Virus record (IMG/VR): IMGVR_UViG_3300006920_000203
Coordinates: 1-26,413 of that record
Source of the DNA: a virus
Direction: 5' to 3' (one strand)
DNA length: 26,413 bases
Part shown: positions 6,707 through 16,063 of the stretch, piece by piece
How positions within the stretch are numbered: the first letter of the stretch is position 1
Layout: the number at the start of each line of letters is the position of its first letter
The notes under the pieces: generated by a model
Seen by the model: only the letters and a program-made list of their open reading frames with translations
Databases searched by the model: none
Told to the model about the DNA's origin: nothing
Program-made: the position numbers and the translations under genes

Positions 6707-7117
6707 ATGGTTAATAGTCAACTAAATAACACATCGTTACCGGTTTTATTCGAGCGCTTTACAAAATGGCATTATGACCGCAATTTAATTGAAGGTACGA
6801 CCAGTGTTATTCAGTTTAAAAAACTACTCGAAGAAGTGATCGAACTTTACATGGCGTTAAAACCTGGTTTAGACCCGTTCGAAGCTGTGCTTGAAATAAA
6901 CGATATAGTTACAGAATTATTAGACGAAGGGCGTATAAAAACGTGCGATGGTTCAGGTTTACCAGACTCAATCGGTGATATTAATGTCGTGCTTGATAAT
7001 ATTGCAGAACGTGAAGGGTATTCAATGGCACAGTGTTTAACTAGCGCTTGGCACGATATCAAAGACCGTAAGGGTAAGATGGTTAACGGTACGTTCGTCA
7101 AGGAGTCAGATTTATGA
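6707..7117 (+). CDS. MazG-like nucleotide pyrophosphohydrolase
   Basis: The protein has 136 aa. FKKLLEEVIELYMAL supplies the E-x-x-E helix and DSIGDINVVLDNIAEREG the partner D-x-x-D helix of all-alpha NTP pyrophosphatases. The tail AWHDIKDRKGKMVNGTFVKE is the standard MazG-like ending. Such phage enzymes hydrolyse NTPs or dNTPs, and some have been linked to alarmone signalling or nucleotide-pool control. TTGGAG lies 10 bases before the ATG. The stop overlaps the polymerase start (ATGA), so the two are co-translated. Confidence 0.88.
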   Translation: MVNSQLNNTSLPVLFERFTKWHYDRNLIEGTTSVIQFKKLLEEVIELYMALKPGLDPFEAVLEINDIVTELLDEGRIKTCDGSGLPDSIGDINVVLDNIAEREGYSMAQCLTSAWHDIKDRKGKMVNGTFVKESDL

Positions 7118-9249
7118 AATACTTATCACATTGTGACGATTTGAACGGCTGTGGTAAAACGTTCCCTGGCGATATGTCACATTGTCCACATTGCGGTACA
7201 CCTGAACAGTTTTCAAAGCAAGCGCACGTCAACCCACGTGACTATGGGTACGATTTGGAAACTTACCCCAATTGCTTTACGGCTCGATTCATCCATATCG
7301 CTACCGATACGCGTTGGCGATTCGAGATCAGCGAATTTGTCGACGACTCAGTGGCTTTAATCGCTTTCGTTATGCAGCTTAAAGCCTGTAACGCTCGCGG
7401 CGTCGGTTACAATAACGTGGGGTTTGACTACCCAGTGTTACACCGTATCGTTATGGGGCAAATGAACGACCCCCGCGCTATTTACGATTTAGCGATGCGA
7501 TTGATCAAAGGTTCGAAAGACGAAAAGTTTGCGTTGCAAGTTTGGGACAACGAGCGACTATTCGAACAACTCGATTTAATTATGGTGTGGCATTACAACA
7601 AAGAGAACCCAGTCACAGGTACAGAGCCGACGAGCCTTAAAGCGCTTGAAATTGCGATGCGTATGGATAACGTCGACGATTTACCGTTCCCCGTTGGTAC
7701 AGTGTTAAACCGTGAACAAATCGAAGCGTTACACGCATATAACGAGCACGACGTTATCGCCACAATATTCTTTTACGTTCGGTCATTGACCCAAATTAAA
7801 CTACGTGAAGAACTATCCGTGACGTTCGGCAAGTCGTTTATGAACCACTCGAACACTAAAATGGGCGGCGATATTCTTATTCACGAATGTGAAAAGGCTG
7901 GTATCGAGTTTTACGACCGCGTGGGGCGTACTAAACACAAACGCCAAACGATACGCGCGTCAATCAATTTAGCCGAGTGTATATTCCCTTATGTTAAATT
8001 CGAGCGTCCAGAGTTTGAAGCGGTTCGAGCGTACTTAGCTAGCAAGACCATCACCGAAACTAAGGGCGTGTTTACTGGACTTAACGCCGATGTCAACGGA
8101 CTTAAATACTATTTCGGCACCGGTGGTATACATGCAAGTGTCGAGTCTCGTATATTCACATCTAACGTCACACATCAGATAATTGATGTAGATGTCGCCA
8201 GCTTTTACCCGAACCTAGCCATTCAGAACAGGTTACACGCTGACCATTTAGGAGTGGCATTCTGTGACGCTTACGAGGGAGTTTATAAAACACGTAAAAC
8301 GTATAAAAAAGGCAGCGCAGAGAACGCAGCATACAAAGAAGCCCTTAACGCTAACTACGGTAATAGTAACAACGCTTATAGTGTGTTCCTTGATCCTAAG
8401 TTCACGATGTCAATCACGCTCAACGGTCAATTATTGCTTTGTATGCTCGTCGAGCAACTAATCAAAGTGCCAGGTCTTGAAATGATTCAGGCCAACACCG
8501 ACGGCGTGACGTACTTTTGTCCACGTGGATACATTGAACACACCAGAGCGCTGTGTAAATGGTGGGAGCAGTTGACGCAACTTGAACTCGAAGAAGCGCA
8601 ATATTCTAGAATGTTTATCCGTGACGTTAACAGCTACATTGCCGAATATGAAGGCGGTAAATTGAAACGTATCGGTGCGTATGCTCACGAGCGCATGGAC
8701 GAGAATCCCGGCACGCGTGAAGTGCCTTACGGTAAGGACCCGTCACAACTAATAGTTCCTAAAGCGGCTGAGGCTGCGTTAGTACGTGGTGAGGATATTC
8801 GCACATTCATAATGAACCACGTTGACAACTACGACTTCATGTGTCGCGCCAAAGTGCCACGCTCGAATCGTCTCGTAATGCGTTGGCCAGAATATGACGC
8901 CGAAATGGAACTTAACAGTATCATTCGTTACTACGTATCGAACGACGGCGGTACGCTCGTTAAAATCGCCCCACCTACGGGCGAGATTGGCACGTGGAAA
9001 CGCGCAACAAAGGTCAGCGATACGTTGTACAATCAAGTGATCGCTGAGGTGGGCGACGCATGGGACGAACGTATCCACACGAAGAATCGCAGCAAGCACG
9101 ATAAGCGCGAAATGGGTATATGTGTGGGTTGGCGTGTTACGGACTGTTCAAACGTGAAGAACTTCGACCGTTCAACCGTTAATTACGACTATTACGTCGA
9201 ACAAGCGGAAAAACTCGTTAAACCTCTATTGACGCCATTGTCAAAGTGA
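7114..9249 (+). CDS. Family B DNA polymerase with 3'-5' exonuclease
   Basis: The protein has 711 aa. Four cysteines at 7, 13, 24 and 27 form an N-terminal zinc ribbon. Exo I DLE (47-49), Exo II YNNVGFD (99-105) and Exo III YNEHD (209-213) give the DEDD proofreading site. The polymerase region has the YFGTGGIHA block (333-341), motif A D360-VASFYP, motif B KEALNANYG (408-416) and motif C ANTDG (460-464). Motif C has Asn in place of the first Asp of the classical DTDS, which I recall from other phage enzymes of this group. The protein is shorter than typical family B polymerases and has no obvious protein-priming insertions that I could place. It is the main replicase of the phage. Upstream coupling to mazG is through a 4-base overlap. 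Confidence 0.93.
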   Translation: MKYLSHCDDLNGCGKTFPGDMSHCPHCGTPEQFSKQAHVNPRDYGYDLETYPNCFTARFIHIATDTRWRFEISEFVDDSVALIAFVMQLKACNARGVGYNNVGFDYPVLHRIVMGQMNDPRAIYDLAMRLIKGSKDEKFALQVWDNERLFEQLDLIMVWHYNKENPVTGTEPTSLKALEIAMRMDNVDDLPFPVGTVLNREQIEALHAYNEHDVIATIFFYVRSLTQIKLREELSVTFGKSFMNHSNTKMGGDILIHECEKAGIEFYDRVGRTKHKRQTIRASINLAECIFPYVKFERPEFEAVRAYLASKTITETKGVFTGLNADVNGLKYYFGTGGIHASVESRIFTSNVTHQIIDVDVASFYPNLAIQNRLHADHLGVAFCDAYEGVYKTRKTYKKGSAENAAYKEALNANYGNSNNAYSVFLDPKFTMSITLNGQLLLCMLVEQLIKVPGLEMIQANTDGVTYFCPRGYIEHTRALCKWWEQLTQLELEEAQYSRMFIRDVNSYIAEYEGGKLKRIGAYAHERMDENPGTREVPYGKDPSQLIVPKAAEAALVRGEDIRTFIMNHVDNYDFMCRAKVPRSNRLVMRWPEYDAEMELNSIIRYYVSNDGGTLVKIAPPTGEIGTWKRATKVSDTLYNQVIAEVGDAWDERIHTKNRSKHDKREMGICVGWRVTDCSNVKNFDRSTVNYDYYVEQAEKLVKPLLTPLSK

Positions 9250-10572: not shown

Positions 10573-11103
10573 ATGAACAATAAATTAGTCGGCGGTACAT
10601 TATTTGCGGCCGTCGCGCTCGTTGCGGGTTTTGAAGGTACTAAATACTTGGCGTATCAAGACCCCGTGGGGATATGGACTATTTGCACAGGCGCGACAAA
10701 AGGCGTCAAACAGGGCGATACAGCTACGCCCAAAGAATGCCAAGACAGATTAATCGTTGAATTACTTGAACACGCTAAACCGCTTCAACGTATACCACAC
10801 AAATTACCCGACAATGTGATCGTGGCGTGGGCTGACTTCTCATACAACCTAGGCACGGGCGCGTTGCAAAATTCCACAGGTTATAAGTTACTGCGGCAAG
10901 GCAGGTGGCGAGAGTCGTGTAAAAATATCTTAGCTTATAAGTATATTCGAGTCGGCGGGAAACTTGTCGACTGCTTCGACGATGCGAACGCGCGGACTTG
11001 TGGCGGGATAAAAAAACGGCGCACAACTGAATATCAATTATGCGCCGGTAAGATTAGCGTTGAACAAGCAACACTGTTGTTCAGCTCTACACATAGAGGT
11101 TAG
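10573..11103 (+). CDS. SAR-type endolysin, glycoside hydrolase family 24 lysozyme
   Basis: The protein has 176 aa. The N-terminus (KLVGGTLFAAVALVAG) is a weakly hydrophobic signal-anchor-release segment. The catalytic triad Glu21-x8-Asp30-x5-Thr36 matches phage P21-type lysozymes. WADFSYNLGTGAL and GRWRESCKNI are further family blocks, and CGGIKKRRTTEYQLC is the usual RRxxE..L region. It would be exported by the host Sec system and cleave peptidoglycan after release from the membrane. GAGG lies about 10 bases before the ATG. The stop overlaps the fibre stop on the other strand by 2 bases, and no terminator is visible. Confidence 0.93.
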   Translation: MNNKLVGGTLFAAVALVAGFEGTKYLAYQDPVGIWTICTGATKGVKQGDTATPKECQDRLIVELLEHAKPLQRIPHKLPDNVIVAWADFSYNLGTGALQNSTGYKLLRQGRWRESCKNILAYKYIRVGGKLVDCFDDANARTCGGIKKRRTTEYQLCAGKISVEQATLLFSSTHRG

Positions 11104-13118
11104 TAAACTACATCTTCCCAGTTAGACAAATACAATTGACCAATTAAAAACTTCCAGTGGTTTGCGTTAGCCACTGATGGTGCAAGTTTGATAAGTATAG
11201 AATGACCATTTATTGCAGCTGGTGTGTTTGCTCTAGATATCCAAAATTGGGACTCTGCATTATTAGCTACCCCAACGTTAATAATGTCTGTCACCGTAAA
11301 ACCTTTATTAGCTGAGACAGCTAGACCAACTGTTGCAGAACTACCATCTGGGATGTCTCGATATACTGATTTCATATGACACATTCCGCTGCAATCATAG
11401 CTGGCAGTGTCAAGCAGTATATAACCTCCCGCGTCCTTCGCTGCCAATCCTTGTTCATGGAAGTTGCTATTAAATTCATCCACTAGACCACCCACATTTT
11501 TAACACTAAACGGTTTAACGTTTTTAACAGTGGGTGTGGTGTTTGACATTAAGTTAGCGCTAGATGTTATCGCCCCGAACTCAGCGTAATCATTATCGCT
11601 TGTGAATATCACGGGGGTGATTTTAACCTTGGCAGCTGAAGTTGTAAACGATATGAGTTTATTTAAAACTTTTAAAAGGTCATTATTGCTTTTTGGTGAG
11701 CTAATAATACTTGGGTCAGTAGTACCACCCCATACAAACATAGCGCATGAACCATCATCAGATAGTCCCGCAACTGCTTTTGCATAGTTATCTATTTTAC
11801 TCACACTTAAAGTGTATGCCGCATGTGTAAATAGCCCGATTACGGGTATCAACTTTGTGCTGGGGTGTTTAACTAAGTAGCTCCCCTGAAGAACTACCCC
11901 CTTAACAGTGTTATTTCTATCAATTGTATCAGTGAGATATTTAGAACTTAACGCTCCCTCGGTATAATAGTGCTGTAGAAATATAATATCAAACTTATCT
12001 GACACTAATCTAGTCATTTCCATTTCCAGCACAGCAGAGCAAGCTATGGGTTTATTAGTCACAGCCTTATAACTAAGCACTCTTGCATCTTGTGCTGCTA
12101 CAGGTATGGCTTGCGCGTCCGGTTCATCATATATATAGAAGGCAATGACATTAGCATAATCAGTTATTAGCTGTGGTAGTGATGCTACAGCTTCATTACT
12201 GTAAGCCATAATCTGCATCTTAGCTGCAATAACGCTGCGAAGTAGTAGTAACTGATTGGATTCAGCAAATAACCCGAACGACATGATAGTGTTAATACCT
12301 TTCGATTTAAGATAAGAACACGTCCCCCAATCCCAATCTGTGTCTGTATAAGCCATTCTTATGGGTTCACCTGCTCCAACTTTATTCTCCATACACACTG
12401 AGATATTGAAAGTGTGGCCAGCCTTCGTCTGTATTTGAGCGCTACCTGCAAAACTCAACGCGTCAGTAGCTGGAATAAAGTTCTCAGTCTTGTAAGTCAA
12501 CGTGTTAGCTACGATAGTTCCAACACCGGCAGCCTCCATCTGAGTTAACACCACATCAATGTCACTTACTGTTGAGTCAACAGCACCAAAACTATCAACA
12601 GTTGTGTTGCCGTCAACCTTAACGAAACAACCAGAACCGACACCCACGGTGTAGAGTGTTGCTAAGTCGCCAAAAGTACCGTCCCAAGCCAGAACCCTGA
12701 TTGGGTCTAATACGGTTCCTCCGTTATGAGTAGCTTTGTCCTTTGTGTCGTCCCAAATAAACAAACCGCCACCAACACTTGAATCCACGTAAAAACCGTT
12801 AACGACTGTACCGGATTTATCAGATGGATTAGTTACTAAACCTAAATCTTTTATTGAGTCTACAGTCCTGCCGAACAAATTAAACATCGCATCGACACGT
12901 TGCGATACCCCAAGTTTATCAGGTTCACCACTCGGTACGATACCAGCTTGCGCGAATAACTCAGCGTCGGAACCCGCGTAATCGTTACCCCACGCAGCGT
13001 CGAGCGGCGTACCGTCCTTAGCACCGGGTACTGACTCGTTTTTTAACGAACCATAAGGGTAATCGCCGTCGGCGGGATTTGCGCGTGGTGCGAACTTTTC
13101 ATAAATTTTAATGGCCAT
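11100..13118 (-). CDS. Tail fibre/tailspike with putative TIM-barrel glycosidase-like domain
   Basis: The protein has 672 aa. Residues 1 to about 90 are a virion-anchor region (NPADGDYPYGSLKN, GTPLDAAWGNDYAG), typical of phage fibres next to the baseplate. Residues 104-150 (GFYVDSSVGGGLFIWD, NGGTVLDP) resemble the entry of tailspike beta-helix domains. From about 250 to 465 repeated beta-alpha units appear: GINTIMSFG, AKMQIMAYS, NVIAFYIYDEPDA (323-335), FDIIFLQHYY, GSCAMFVWGG. YxxDEPD is a hallmark of barrel glycosidase-like domains, with Glu332 a candidate acid. The C-terminal 200 residues look like a beta-sandwich. Predicted role: receptor binding and possibly cleavage of a surface polysaccharide. 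CpG is rare in about 11100-12590 but frequent in the anchor-coding part. Confidence 0.8.
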   Translation of the reverse strand: MAIKIYEKFAPRANPADGDYPYGSLKNESVPGAKDGTPLDAAWGNDYAGSDAELFAQAGIVPSGEPDKLGVSQRVDAMFNLFGRTVDSIKDLGLVTNPSDKSGTVVNGFYVDSSVGGGLFIWDDTKDKATHNGGTVLDPIRVLAWDGTFGDLATLYTVGVGSGCFVKVDGNTTVDSFGAVDSTVSDIDVVLTQMEAAGVGTIVANTLTYKTENFIPATDALSFAGSAQIQTKAGHTFNISVCMENKVGAGEPIRMAYTDTDWDWGTCSYLKSKGINTIMSFGLFAESNQLLLLRSVIAAKMQIMAYSNEAVASLPQLITDYANVIAFYIYDEPDAQAIPVAAQDARVLSYKAVTNKPIACSAVLEMEMTRLVSDKFDIIFLQHYYTEGALSSKYLTDTIDRNNTVKGVVLQGSYLVKHPSTKLIPVIGLFTHAAYTLSVSKIDNYAKAVAGLSDDGSCAMFVWGGTTDPSIISSPKSNNDLLKVLNKLISFTTSAAKVKITPVIFTSDNDYAEFGAITSSANLMSNTTPTVKNVKPFSVKNVGGLVDEFNSNFHEQGLAAKDAGGYILLDTASYDCSGMCHMKSVYRDIPDGSSATVGLAVSANKGFTVTDIINVGVANNAESQFWISRANTPAAINGHSILIKLAPSVANANHWKFLIGQLYLSNWEDVVY

Positions 13119-13123
13119 TGTGG

Positions 13124-13759
13124 CTATGCTCCAAAGTAGAAACCGAATGATGCGCGAGTATCACCAAAACTAAACGCCCCGCCAAACTGTGTAATTGCTG
13201 TTTCTTCGACGTACCCCAAAAACCTAACACCTTGCGGTCTTGGTACTACGTCAAACGTGTTAAATACAAACCTTTCAATATCTGTTAATTCCGACCCGAA
13301 TGACACGCTCATTGTCATGTTTTCGTTATCGACAACCTGTATCGGACTTGACTCAGTGATGAAACTTAACGCTGATGCGATACCGTCAAGTGTCGCGTCG
13401 TTGTTGTTCTTGGCAATTTTAGCACGAATGAGCACGCGAAATATAGCGTCACTAACCCCTTGCGATAATACAGAACCTGTAGACTCGAATTGCGAATCAG
13501 CGCCACCAAATTGACAAGCGTCACCTTCACCGCCGAAATACGTATCAGGGTCAAACACGACAAACGATTCAAACCCGCGGTCAATAACGACAATTCGACC
13601 AATAACGTCAAGTTGTGCACCGACAGCCGTGTCGATATCGTAAGACATTCTAACCGCGTCGAACGTATCGAATAGCGGTTGCGCCATTGCTGGCGTGATG
13701 TTATACCACGCAACAGCTTTGGGTTTATCCGCGTATTGTGCGTAAATACGATTAGGCAT
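13124..13759 (-). CDS. Baseplate/tail protein, DUF2612-like
   Basis: The protein has 211 aa. GAQLDVIGRIVVIDRG is the signature of DUF2612 phage proteins, which occupy the position of Mu gp48 / P2 gpI just after baseplate J. They are thought to link the wedge to the fibre. The next gene downstream is the fibre, which fits this. Its start overlaps the J gene by 8 bases. Aromatic-glycine repeats occur (TYFGGEGDACQFGGADSQFE and FGGAFSFGDTRASFGFYFGA). Confidence 0.82.
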   Translation of the reverse strand: MPNRIYAQYADKPKAVAWYNITPAMAQPLFDTFDAVRMSYDIDTAVGAQLDVIGRIVVIDRGFESFVVFDPDTYFGGEGDACQFGGADSQFESTGSVLSQGVSDAIFRVLIRAKIAKNNNDATLDGIASALSFITESSPIQVVDNENMTMSVSFGSELTDIERFVFNTFDVVPRPQGVRFLGYVEETAITQFGGAFSFGDTRASFGFYFGA

Positions 13760-14957
13760 TGATAGTCACCGCTATATTACCCGACGTCCAGCGCGACAAC
13801 TCGTTAAACGCGATAGGTACTTGACCACCTGTTAACGTGTTCACCGTTAAGCCAGTTACGTATGAATTGCCGTATTGACCTATAACCTGATTCACAGGTG
13901 TGTAAATACGCGATACTGGGACTTCTTCGCCAATGTCAAACCCGACAGCGTTAAATCCACATTCAACGGCTACAAGGTCGCCAGCCGCGTAATCTAAAAT
14001 CGCCTGACTTATTAAATCGGCGACGTTACCTGGTAATGATCCGTCGTTTTGAATCGTAACGACCACGATCATATCGATATACGTTGGACGGCTGAACGTG
14101 ATGTCTTTTTTATTTGACGGATACAAGTCGAATACGTCTAGCACCGTGACAAGTGTACCGCTAGCGTGAAACGTACAGCCCGGATTCTTTTTACGGAATA
14201 TAGCGAGCGCTACGTCCGCGTCAGTTCCACCGTCAACGATAGGTGCGATACTGTGTTCAGGTAATCCGTTTGCGTCTGTTACGTCAGTGTCGTTCTCATA
14301 AATCACAGCGCGACGAACACCGTTTACCGCGAATATCTCGCCGAGCATATTGTCAACTTGAGCGTTACCAGGTCGTGATACGGATTTGGCGCGTTCGAGT
14401 CGTAACGATGCGTCATTTTGTCGATTCGTGCCGGGTGTTGCAACCGATGCGTTCGTGACAGTTTGCCAACCACCCACAACGTTAACGATACGTGTCAACG
14501 TACCTATATTAGCTTGTGTCGCCCCGTTGACCGTACACGTAGCGTTGACCGTAACCGTACCGCCACCACCGATTGTGGCGTTAGTATCAATCGACCAACG
14601 TGAACCGTCAACACGGGACTCGACTTGACGACCAGCGATAATCACTGTGCCGGGTACGCCGCCGAGTGTTAATTCCACATTGCTCGGAGTTCCTTGACTG
14701 CGAATAGTACCGGTCAATGAGCAGATAATATTTAAGTCGACATTCTTCGCTTTGTTCGGGTCTTTTGAGTTGTAAGCGACTTGCCCCAACTCGTCAAGAT
14801 TCGTCCAAATTTCAGCGTCCGACGCTAGCTTTAAACCGTCGGGCGTCGATGGGTCTAGGTTCCATTTCGGGTCGATTGCGAGATATAACGCCCGCTCAGT
14901 ATCGAACCACTGGTTTTGTGGGTATAGTACATAACCCGTTGATGTTAGTTCGGCCAT
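13752..14957 (-). CDS. Baseplate J-like wedge protein
   Basis: The protein has 401 aa. Features shared with Mu gp47 / P2 gpJ are QGTPSNVELTLGGVPGTVII followed by the RQVES region, TNASVATPGTNRQNDASLRL followed by ERAKSVS, and GEIFAVNGVRRAVIYENDTD. It forms the baseplate wedge around the hub in contractile tails. It starts at a TAATG junction with the gp25/W-like gene and ends inside the DUF2612 gene. Confidence 0.9.
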   Translation of the reverse strand: MAELTSTGYVLYPQNQWFDTERALYLAIDPKWNLDPSTPDGLKLASDAEIWTNLDELGQVAYNSKDPNKAKNVDLNIICSLTGTIRSQGTPSNVELTLGGVPGTVIIAGRQVESRVDGSRWSIDTNATIGGGGTVTVNATCTVNGATQANIGTLTRIVNVVGGWQTVTNASVATPGTNRQNDASLRLERAKSVSRPGNAQVDNMLGEIFAVNGVRRAVIYENDTDVTDANGLPEHSIAPIVDGGTDADVALAIFRKKNPGCTFHASGTLVTVLDVFDLYPSNKKDITFSRPTYIDMIVVVTIQNDGSLPGNVADLISQAILDYAAGDLVAVECGFNAVGFDIGEEVPVSRIYTPVNQVIGQYGNSYVTGLTVNTLTGGQVPIAFNELSRWTSGNIAVTINA

Positions 14958-15304
14958 TACACGATCACCGTTGTTGTTTCACCTGTTGTCGTTAGTATAT
15001 CAGCCGTGACGCTATATTTGCGAGTGTTGATATCAAAGTCAGTGTTAAACTCAAGTATACGAACGACCCCCTCTGTCCGAATGATTCGGTTTTTAATCGC
15101 GGCCTCTTTGCTCGATAATGTACCTTCTTTACCTAAAATTGACTGATACCACGGTGTCCCGTCGGTAATATCGCGGAAATACTCACCAATGAATAAGCGT
15201 AGTCGAGTCGCTACGGTTTGCGCTATTTCTTCAACGCCGCCCGTAAATTGCACACCACTTGTCACAATGTCGCCCGTGGTTGGGTCTAATCGTCTTACTG
15301 TCAT
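14957..15304 (-). CDS. Baseplate wedge protein, gp25/W-like
   Basis: The protein has 115 aa. EEIAQTVATRLRLFIGEYFR, TPWYQSILGK, SKEAAIKNRIIRTEGV and the paired beta strands at the end fit the small wedge proteins (T4 gp25, P2 gpW, Mu gp46 group). These proteins connect sheath to baseplate. The order spike, W, J is the classical one. The ATG directly abuts the spike stop codon. Confidence 0.82.
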   Translation of the reverse strand: MTVRRLDPTTGDIVTSGVQFTGGVEEIAQTVATRLRLFIGEYFRDITDGTPWYQSILGKEGTLSSKEAAIKNRIIRTEGVVRILEFNTDFDINTRKYSVTADILTTTGETTTVIV

Positions 15305-16063
15305 TTAAAGTGCTCCACTATTGCCAGTAACCGCATCGCCACCCGCCACGTAAGTACCTGGCGCATGAACGTGTTCTTTAACTTCTTTACCCGCTACAAC
15401 TAACGACGTTGAACCCGTTACGGTTGGTGCAGTTGCGCTAACTGGTGATGATATTGCGCCGTCGGGGGTAATAATAGCGCCGTTAATGTTCACAGTCCCG
15501 TCAGGTGACATTGTGATATTACCAGCGCCATTCGTGCGTGTAATCGTTCCGTCTGGCGCGAGCGTGTCGGTTGCTGCGCCGTTCGTTGATTCAATCGTGC
15601 CGTCACCCTTCAACCACACGTAATGCGAACCGTCAGCGTTACGAATGCGAATACCGTCGTTTGCGAAATCAGTGATCACATTGTTCAGTGAACGGACGCC
15701 GGGTAAAAAAAACGCATCGTTAATGTCGTGAAAACGCATGATTGGATTTTCGGCAACACCACCCGTCGTTAACCACCCGTCAATGCAACGCTGTGAAAAT
15801 AAGATCACACCTTCGTCGTTCGGGTCGATTTGATACTCGACGACCCATTTACCACCCGCGAAATACACTGGCACTTCGATAAGCGGTGGGGGCGTGAACG
15901 ATTTACCGCGTACGTCGATGCGCACAATGCCGATTTGAACCTGTGCGAGTTGCGTTTGTGGGTCAAACGATAAGATATGGCCGGGGACAGACGTCGCGAC
16001 ATCCTTCATCATTTCTGAGAATGTGCGCTTGAATAGCTCGGTCATTGTCGCTGTAGTGGTCAT
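15305..16063 (-). CDS. Central spike / baseplate puncturing protein (Gp138/gpV-like)
   Basis: The protein has 252 aa. The N-terminal domain (PGHILSFDPQTQLAQVQI, VPVYFAGG, DEGVILFSQRCIDGWL) is an OB-like Gp138_N/gpV fold. The middle repeats short glycine-asparagine beta units (DGTIESTNGA, DGTITRTNGA, DGTVNINGA), as in a triple-stranded beta helix. Near the end, KEHVHAPG carries an HxH motif like the iron-binding apex of P2 and phi92 spikes. The trimeric spike would pierce the outer membrane. No clear ribosome site precedes either ATG (16063 or the in-frame 16045), and a terminator for the upstream strand lies just before it, so its expression is not obvious. Confidence 0.85.
   Translation of the reverse strand: MTTTATMTELFKRTFSEMMKDVATSVPGHILSFDPQTQLAQVQIGIVRIDVRGKSFTPPPLIEVPVYFAGGKWVVEYQIDPNDEGVILFSQRCIDGWLTTGGVAENPIMRFHDINDAFFLPGVRSLNNVITDFANDGIRIRNADGSHYVWLKGDGTIESTNGAATDTLAPDGTITRTNGAGNITMSPDGTVNINGAIITPDGAISSPVSATAPTVTGSTSLVVAGKEVKEHVHAPGTYVAGGDAVTGNSGAL

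What the first reader, a model, noticed from the sequence alone, without database searches (positions are those of the whole stretch)
11100..13118. Tail fibre with a built-in TIM-barrel glycosidase-like domain
The YxxDEPD block (328-334) within regular beta-alpha units is unusual in a phage fibre, where beta-helix lyases are the common depolymerases. It may be a new type of capsule- or O-antigen-degrading enzyme, or an inactivated barrel used for binding.
Basis: partly seen in the sequence, partly recalled or inferred. Interest (0 to 1): 0.6.

Follow-up and report, generated by a model that had tools for sequence, protein, structure and literature searches.

The report
Phage tail spike with sugar-cleaving barrel
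This gene encodes a phage tail protein whose middle part folds like a sugar-cutting enzyme barrel, a rare design already described in a few Acinetobacter phages; here it is a very divergent member whose only fully conserved acidic catalytic pair suggests it cuts amino-sugar links in the host's surface polysaccharide.

Summary
In detail: a 672-aa tail protein (11100-13118, minus strand) has YIYDEPD exactly at residues 328-334. AlphaFold2 predicts a (beta/alpha)8 barrel over about residues 254-494 (barrel alone: pLDDT 79, pTM 0.82), with Asp331-Glu332 ending beta4; its best structural matches are clan GH-A glycosidases (Z 17-19.6). It is not a new type of enzyme: the same barrel occurs in tailspikes of Acinetobacter phages Aci07, Bestia, APK26 and AB3P2 (published 2024-2025; APK26 is a shown K26-capsule hydrolase) and of PE3-1, Monomax, TH27 and PWH3a-P1. 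The window's copy is about 20-27% identical to these, has the longest branch of 21, and sits in a PhiPLPE/CP-T1-like myophage where PhiPLPE has its tail fibre. New here: across 21 members Asp331-Glu332 and Tyr384 are invariant, Trp463 nearly so, and no acid is conserved on beta7. That argues against the standard GH-A two-glutamate mechanism and fits GH20/GH123-like substrate-assisted attack on a 2-acetamido sugar. The window copy lacks the family's usual beta2 His-Tyr and the beta5, beta6 and beta8 acids, so a non-catalytic, binding barrel is not excluded. No activity was tested.

The parts
11100..13118 (-). Whole tail fibre/spike gene, 672 aa
   Evidence: open frame; PHROG tail-fibre hits; homologues
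12870..13118 (-). Residues 1-83: virion (baseplate) attachment part
   Evidence: 43% identical over residues 3-128 to phiPLPE_63, a tail fibre confirmed by MS; phrog_26525 and phrog_17640; role inferred
12591..12869 (-). Residues 84-176: adaptor module shared by unrelated tailspikes
   Evidence: 37-53% identity to tailspikes of Shewanella, Aeromonas, Salmonella and Vibrio phages over residues 81-201
12387..12590 (-). Residues 177-244: start of a pectate-lyase-type beta-helix (N-cap), on which the barrel sits
   Evidence: family profile A2 hits the cap of GH55 beta-helix 3eqn/5m5z at positions 6-56; PF12708 in one member; low pLDDT in the model
11628..12386 (-). Residues 245-497: (beta/alpha)8 barrel, glycoside-hydrolase-like
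   Evidence: AF2; VIA-align Z up to 19.6 to clan GH-A; homologues
12117..12137 (-). YIYDEPD, residues 328-334, end of beta4
12123..12128 (-). Asp331-Glu332, invariant putative catalytic dyad
   Evidence: 21 of 21 sequences
11967..11969 (-). Tyr384, end of beta6, invariant
   Evidence: 21 of 21
11730..11732 (-). Trp463, end of beta8, 20 of 21 (Tyr in APK26)
12276..12281 (-). Ser280-Phe281 where the other 20 members have His-Tyr (beta2)
11727..11729 (-). Gly464 where 19 of 20 others have Asp/Glu (beta8); compare Gln382 (Asp in 17 of 20) and Ala362 (acid in 19 of 20)
11103..11627 (-). Residues 498-672: C-terminal beta domain (trimerisation/binding inferred)
   Evidence: AF2 pLDDT mostly 65-90 over residues 558-665; conserved with PE3-1 to the C-terminus
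13124..13759 (-). DUF2612 baseplate-region structural protein upstream
   Evidence: PF11041 8e-34; phrog_587
13752..15304 (-). Baseplate J-like and second baseplate wedge genes
   Evidence: PF04865; phrog_6, phrog_120

Best explanation
It is the receptor-binding tail fibre/spike of a PhiPLPE/CP-T1-like myophage, carrying a TIM-barrel polysaccharide hydrolase (depolymerase) of the Aci07/APK26/PE3-1 kind. Residues 1-83 attach it to the baseplate, 84-176 is an exchangeable adaptor, 177-244 is the cap of a beta-helix whose body is absent and onto which the barrel (245-497) is grafted, and 498-672 is a C-terminal beta domain. The barrel binds the host's capsule or O-polysaccharide and cleaves a glycosidic bond so that the tail can reach the outer membrane. 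Most likely chemistry: substrate-assisted hydrolysis as in GH20/GH123. [quoted passage not shown] a beta-linked N-acetylated amino sugar (GlcNAc, GalNAc, FucNAc or similar) is the predicted target. Shown here (computed): architecture, predicted fold, homology, conservation. Inferred: catalysis, its mechanism and the substrate. The confidence below is for active depolymerase plus this mechanism; active depolymerase by any mechanism is about 0.75.
For: Fold: AF2 barrel; GH-A matches Z 17-19.6. Family: best matches among predicted viral structures are the Aci07 depolymerase (TMq 0.80) and PE3-1 (0.76); tblastn homologues include APK26, Bestia, AB3P2, Aci07, IME284. APK26's tailspike is listed among hydrolytic glycosidases with established mechanism (K26 capsule; PMC11126041), and PMC11823257 reports a TIM barrel in Aci07, Bestia, AB3P2 and APK26 and states depolymerase activity for all four phages. 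Dyad: D331, E332, Y384 in 21/21 and W463 in 20/21, no acid conserved on beta7. The same set (DE motif D327-E328, Tyr392, Trp431 in NgaLy) surrounds the substrate in GH123-type enzymes that use substrate-assisted catalysis (PMC11087588). K26 has initiating transferase ItrA3, so GlcNAc is its first sugar (PMC10320297), and many A. baumannii depolymerases cut the bond formed by that first sugar (PMC10715181). Synteny with phiPLPE_63.
Against: The window copy lacks 9 of 26 positions that are near-invariant in its 20 relatives, more than any other member (APK26 lacks 6 of 24), including beta2 His-Tyr and the beta5 and beta8 acids; beta6 Asp is Gln. No profile similarity to GH20 or GH123 was found (hhalign probability below 1%; no Pfam hit). 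No solved structure of a family member turned up in the PDB sequence searches, and the exact bond cut by APK26 was not available in the texts held. Model coordinates could not be read, so side-chain distances were not measured.
Confidence: 0.45

Rival explanations
1. Active depolymerase, but by another mechanism: Glu332 as general acid with a second acid not identified here (inverting, or a GH-A-like retaining variant). In most of the family the beta5, beta6 or beta8 acid could serve; in the window Glu367 or another loop acid would have to.
For: Acids are conserved on beta5 (19 of 21), beta6 (17 of 21) and beta8 (19 of 21); the fold is nearest to clan GH-A, whose beta4 Glu is the acid/base; a GH2-type structure aligns its NEP to the family's DEP.
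Against: Those acids are absent in the window copy (A362, Q382, G464), and the GH-A beta7 Glu is absent in the whole family.
Confidence: 0.28
2. Catalytically dead barrel that only binds the host polysaccharide.
For: Longest branch of 21 sequences and loss of most of the family's mouth residues except DE, Tyr384 and Trp463.
Against: The DE dyad is intact, and APK26, a shown hydrolase, has itself lost 6 of 24 such positions including the beta8 Trp. If each of the 26 positions were kept at the observed rate of 65%, keeping D, E and Tyr together by chance would still happen in about a quarter of cases, so the retention is only weak evidence.
Confidence: 0.2
3. Another carbohydrate-active function in the barrel, such as polysaccharide lyase or esterase (PE3-1's homologue is annotated 'lyase').
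For: Annotation of PE3-1 gp18, no basis given.
Against: Fold and motif resemble hydrolases; the characterised family member APK26 is a hydrolase (PMC11126041); the esterase tailspike of Aristophanes uses an SGNH fold (PMC8471582).
Confidence: 0.05

Closest known systems
TIM-barrel ('transglycosidase domain', SSF51445) tailspike depolymerases of Acinetobacter phages Aci07 gp45, Bestia, APK26 gp48, AB3P2
   Same: Homologous barrel with DEP on beta4, tail-protein context, C-terminal beta domain; TMq 0.80 to the Aci07 model
   Different: About 20-28% identity; window lacks beta2 HY and the beta5, beta6 and beta8 acids; different phage group and N-terminus; activity unknown
Escherichia phage PE3-1 gp18 / JSS1, and Vibrio phage PWH3a-P1 VPIG_00173
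   Same: Nearest clade in the tree (90/85 support, not starred); PE3-1 aligns from the barrel to the C-terminus
   Different: 21-25% identity; podophage or large Vibrio phage; keep HY and the beta6 Asp
Iodobacter phage PhiPLPE gp63 tail fibre
   Same: Same gene order and N-terminus (43% over residues 3-128); tail sheaths 69.5% identical
   Different: Similarity stops at residue 128; PhiPLPE gp63 is shorter (445 aa) and showed no match to the barrel
GH123/DUF4091 and GH20 N-acetylhexosaminidases
   Same: Adjacent Asp-Glu at the beta4 end plus Tyr and Trp at the active site
   Different: No detectable sequence kinship; neither appeared among the structural matches shown; GH123 has an N-terminal beta-sandwich and DUF4091
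Clan GH-A (GH164, GH2, GH42, GH5, GH35, GH113)
   Same: Best fold matches, Z 17-19.6
   Different: Asp instead of Asn before the beta4 Glu; no conserved beta7 Glu in 21 members
Secreted 'DEP' barrel proteins of uncultured Bacteroidia (L033-L036) and a related protein in another genome of the phylum (L070)
   Same: hhalign probability 97% with DEP on DEP
   Different: Bacterial proteins, in the Bacteroidia genomes a paralogue cluster; function unknown; only weakly GH42-like in Pfam

Membership tests
TIM-barrel tailspike depolymerase (Aci07/Bestia/APK26/AB3P2 kind) | Tail fibre/spike gene in the virion structural block | tested here: met
TIM-barrel tailspike depolymerase (Aci07/Bestia/APK26/AB3P2 kind) | (beta/alpha)8 barrel, homologous in sequence | tested here: met
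TIM-barrel tailspike depolymerase (Aci07/Bestia/APK26/AB3P2 kind) | Invariant Asp-Glu on beta4, Tyr on beta6 | tested here: met
   (21 of 21)
TIM-barrel tailspike depolymerase (Aci07/Bestia/APK26/AB3P2 kind) | beta2 His-Tyr and acids on beta5, beta6, beta8 (common in the family by my alignment; not a published defining feature) | tested here: not met
TIM-barrel tailspike depolymerase (Aci07/Bestia/APK26/AB3P2 kind) | Polysaccharide-degrading activity / halo | not testable with these tools
   needs protein and host
Clan GH-A glycoside hydrolase | (beta/alpha)8 fold | tested here: met
Clan GH-A glycoside hydrolase | Asn-Glu at the end of beta4 | tested here: not met
   Asp331-Glu332
Clan GH-A glycoside hydrolase | Glu nucleophile on beta7 | tested here: not met
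   no acid conserved on beta7 in 21 sequences
GH123 / DUF4091 superfamily | DE motif at beta4 with Tyr (NgaLy Y392) and Trp (W431) around the substrate | tested here: inconclusive
   D331, E332, Y384, W463 match by order along the chain against PMC11087588; no superposition could be done
GH123 / DUF4091 superfamily | Sequence profile PF13320 (GH123_cat) | tested here: not met
   no Pfam hit at E<=1; hhalign against a small GH123 set, probability 0.1%
GH20 | Sequence profile PF00728 | tested here: not met
   no Pfam hit; hhalign against 8 GH20 proteins, probability 0.2%
Beta-helix (pectate-lyase-like) tailspike | Beta-helix N-cap | tested here: inconclusive
   family profile hits GH55 caps and one member PF12708, but the model is poor there
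Beta-helix (pectate-lyase-like) tailspike | Beta-helix body as catalytic domain | tested here: not met
   barrel predicted instead

The most novel reading that the evidence does not exclude
The phage barrels together with the secreted Bacteroidia DEP proteins form an undescribed glycoside hydrolase family: a GH-A-like barrel that lost the beta7 nucleophile and works by a beta4 Asp-Glu dyad with substrate assistance, with the window protein as its most reduced active form (dyad, Tyr and Trp only).
Probability: 0.25. Interest if true: 0.6.

Novelty: new member of a known kind. Interest (0 to 1): 0.38.

Why it matters
TIM-barrel tailspikes are rare (about ten isolate phages found among 50,697 records), and no Pfam or NCBIfam model hits this protein. 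This copy carries the family into PhiPLPE/CP-T1-like myophages and, being so divergent, sharpens which residues are indispensable. The family-wide dyad gives a directly testable mechanism and a prediction of the target bond (an N-acetylated amino sugar), useful for matching depolymerases to capsule types.

Tried and rejected
Pfam and NCBIfam scans of the window protein: no hit. Single-protein PDB search: only a chance hit. The search for related loci with the window protein alone returned only a 100% identical contig; a 9-row alignment was too diverse, so three sub-alignments were used. hhalign against GH20 and GH123: no relation; against GH42: 39%, not convincingly aligned at DEP. GH123 and GH20 did not appear in the 50 VIA-align rows shown; this does not exclude them. 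An alignment including Bacteroidia proteins was misaligned at beta6 and not used for AF2. The bond cut by APK26 could not be read: the 2021 K26 paper did not turn up in the library.

Full report
Observation. The ORF at 11100-13118 (-) encodes 672 residues, and YIYDEPD lies exactly at 328-334. PHROG matches place its N-terminal third among tail fibres. It is the last gene of a baseplate block (baseplate wedge, baseplate J, DUF2612 protein, tail fibre). This order matches Iodobacter phage PhiPLPE, whose gp63 tail fibre was found in virions by mass spectrometry. Similarity to gp63 covers only residues 3-128 (43%), while the sheaths are 69.5% identical. The receptor-facing part therefore seems to have been exchanged.

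Fold. With 14 viral-contig relatives AF2 models residues 178-672 as a (beta/alpha)8 barrel followed by a beta domain (pTM 0.74). The barrel alone gives pLDDT 78.7 and pTM 0.82. D331-E332 end strand 4. Foldseek and VIA-align rank clan GH-A enzymes first (GH164 Z 19.6, then GH2, GH42, GH5, GH35). Among predicted viral structures the Aci07 depolymerase (TMq 0.80) and PE3-1 gp18 (0.76) stand far above the rest.

Family. tblastn finds the barrel at 21-28% identity in Acinetobacter phages Aci07, Bestia, APK26, AB3P2 and IME284, in PE3-1/JSS1, Monomax and TH27, and in Vibrio phage PWH3a-P1. Two papers describe it: SSF51445 '(trans)glycosidases' in Aci07 gp45 (PMC11058221), and a TIM barrel in Aci07, Bestia, AB3P2 and APK26, with depolymerase activity stated for all four phages (PMC11823257). 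APK26 is among tailspikes shown to be hydrolytic glycosidases (PMC11126041). The finding is thus a new, distant member of a known kind. A tree of 21 barrels puts it beside the PE3-1/PWH3a-P1 clade without strong support and with the longest end branch, 2.77.

Active site. In 21 sequences D331, E332 and Y384 never vary, and W463 varies once (Tyr in APK26). No acid is conserved on beta7, where clan GH-A keeps its nucleophile. This is the layout of GH123-type enzymes, in which Asp stabilises the substrate's 2-acetamido group and Glu is the acid/base (PMC11087588), and, from general knowledge, of GH20. K26, the APK26 substrate, starts from GlcNAc (ItrA3; PMC10320297), and many A. baumannii depolymerases cut the linkage of that first sugar (PMC10715181). 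This is consistent, not proof. Against it, sequence profiles show no kinship with GH20 or GH123.

What is odd in this copy. Of 26 barrel positions near-invariant in the other 20 members it lacks 9, among them beta2 His-Tyr (Ser-Phe here) and the beta5 and beta8 acids (Ala362, Gly464). The less conserved beta6 Asp is Gln382. The active enzyme APK26 also lacks 6 of 24, so this does not show inactivity, but a binding-only barrel remains possible.

Design. Residues 177-244 look like the first turn of a pectate-lyase-type beta-helix: the family profile hits GH55 caps there, and one member hits PF12708. The barrel seems to be plugged into the socket that other tailspikes use for their beta-helix. 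Modelling is poor at this spot, so this is an inference.

Wider kin. The phage profile also detects DEP-barrel proteins in Bacteroidia and other genomes of that phylum, supported by hhalign at 97% with the DEP motifs aligned. This suggests a bacterial glycosidase-like source.

Noticed in passing
window 12387-12590 (-): A pectate-lyase-type beta-helix cap (FGAVDS...) directly precedes the TIM barrel, here and in relatives; a possible general exchange socket of tailspikes.
   Followed up: partly
window 12591-12869 (-): Residues 84-176 form an adaptor shared at 37-53% with tailspikes of Shewanella, Aeromonas, Salmonella and Vibrio phages whose catalytic parts differ.
   Followed up: partly
L033-L036 (around 2732-5191 in L036): Uncultured Bacteroidia carry a cluster of secreted-looking, about 410-aa DEP-barrel paralogues related to the phage barrel; only fringe Pfam GH42 hits, possibly an unnamed glycosidase family.
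   Followed up: partly
L019 and L020: Two family members have DEA instead of DEP, so Asp-Glu, not the Pro, is the invariant part.
   Followed up: yes
window 10573-11103 (+): Phage lysozyme (endolysin) gene convergent with the tail gene, the two ends overlapping by 4 bases.
   Followed up: no
window 1-26413: Probably a fragment of a PhiPLPE/CP-T1-like myophage genome (sheath 65-70% identical to those phages), with its own DNA polymerase (7114-9249), RusA, MazG, exonuclease and helicase genes.
   Followed up: partly
window 15305-16063 (-): A 252-aa protein in the baseplate block matches Pfam PF18352 and weakly PF21930, a beta-helical trimerisation domain: probably the baseplate spike.
   Followed up: no
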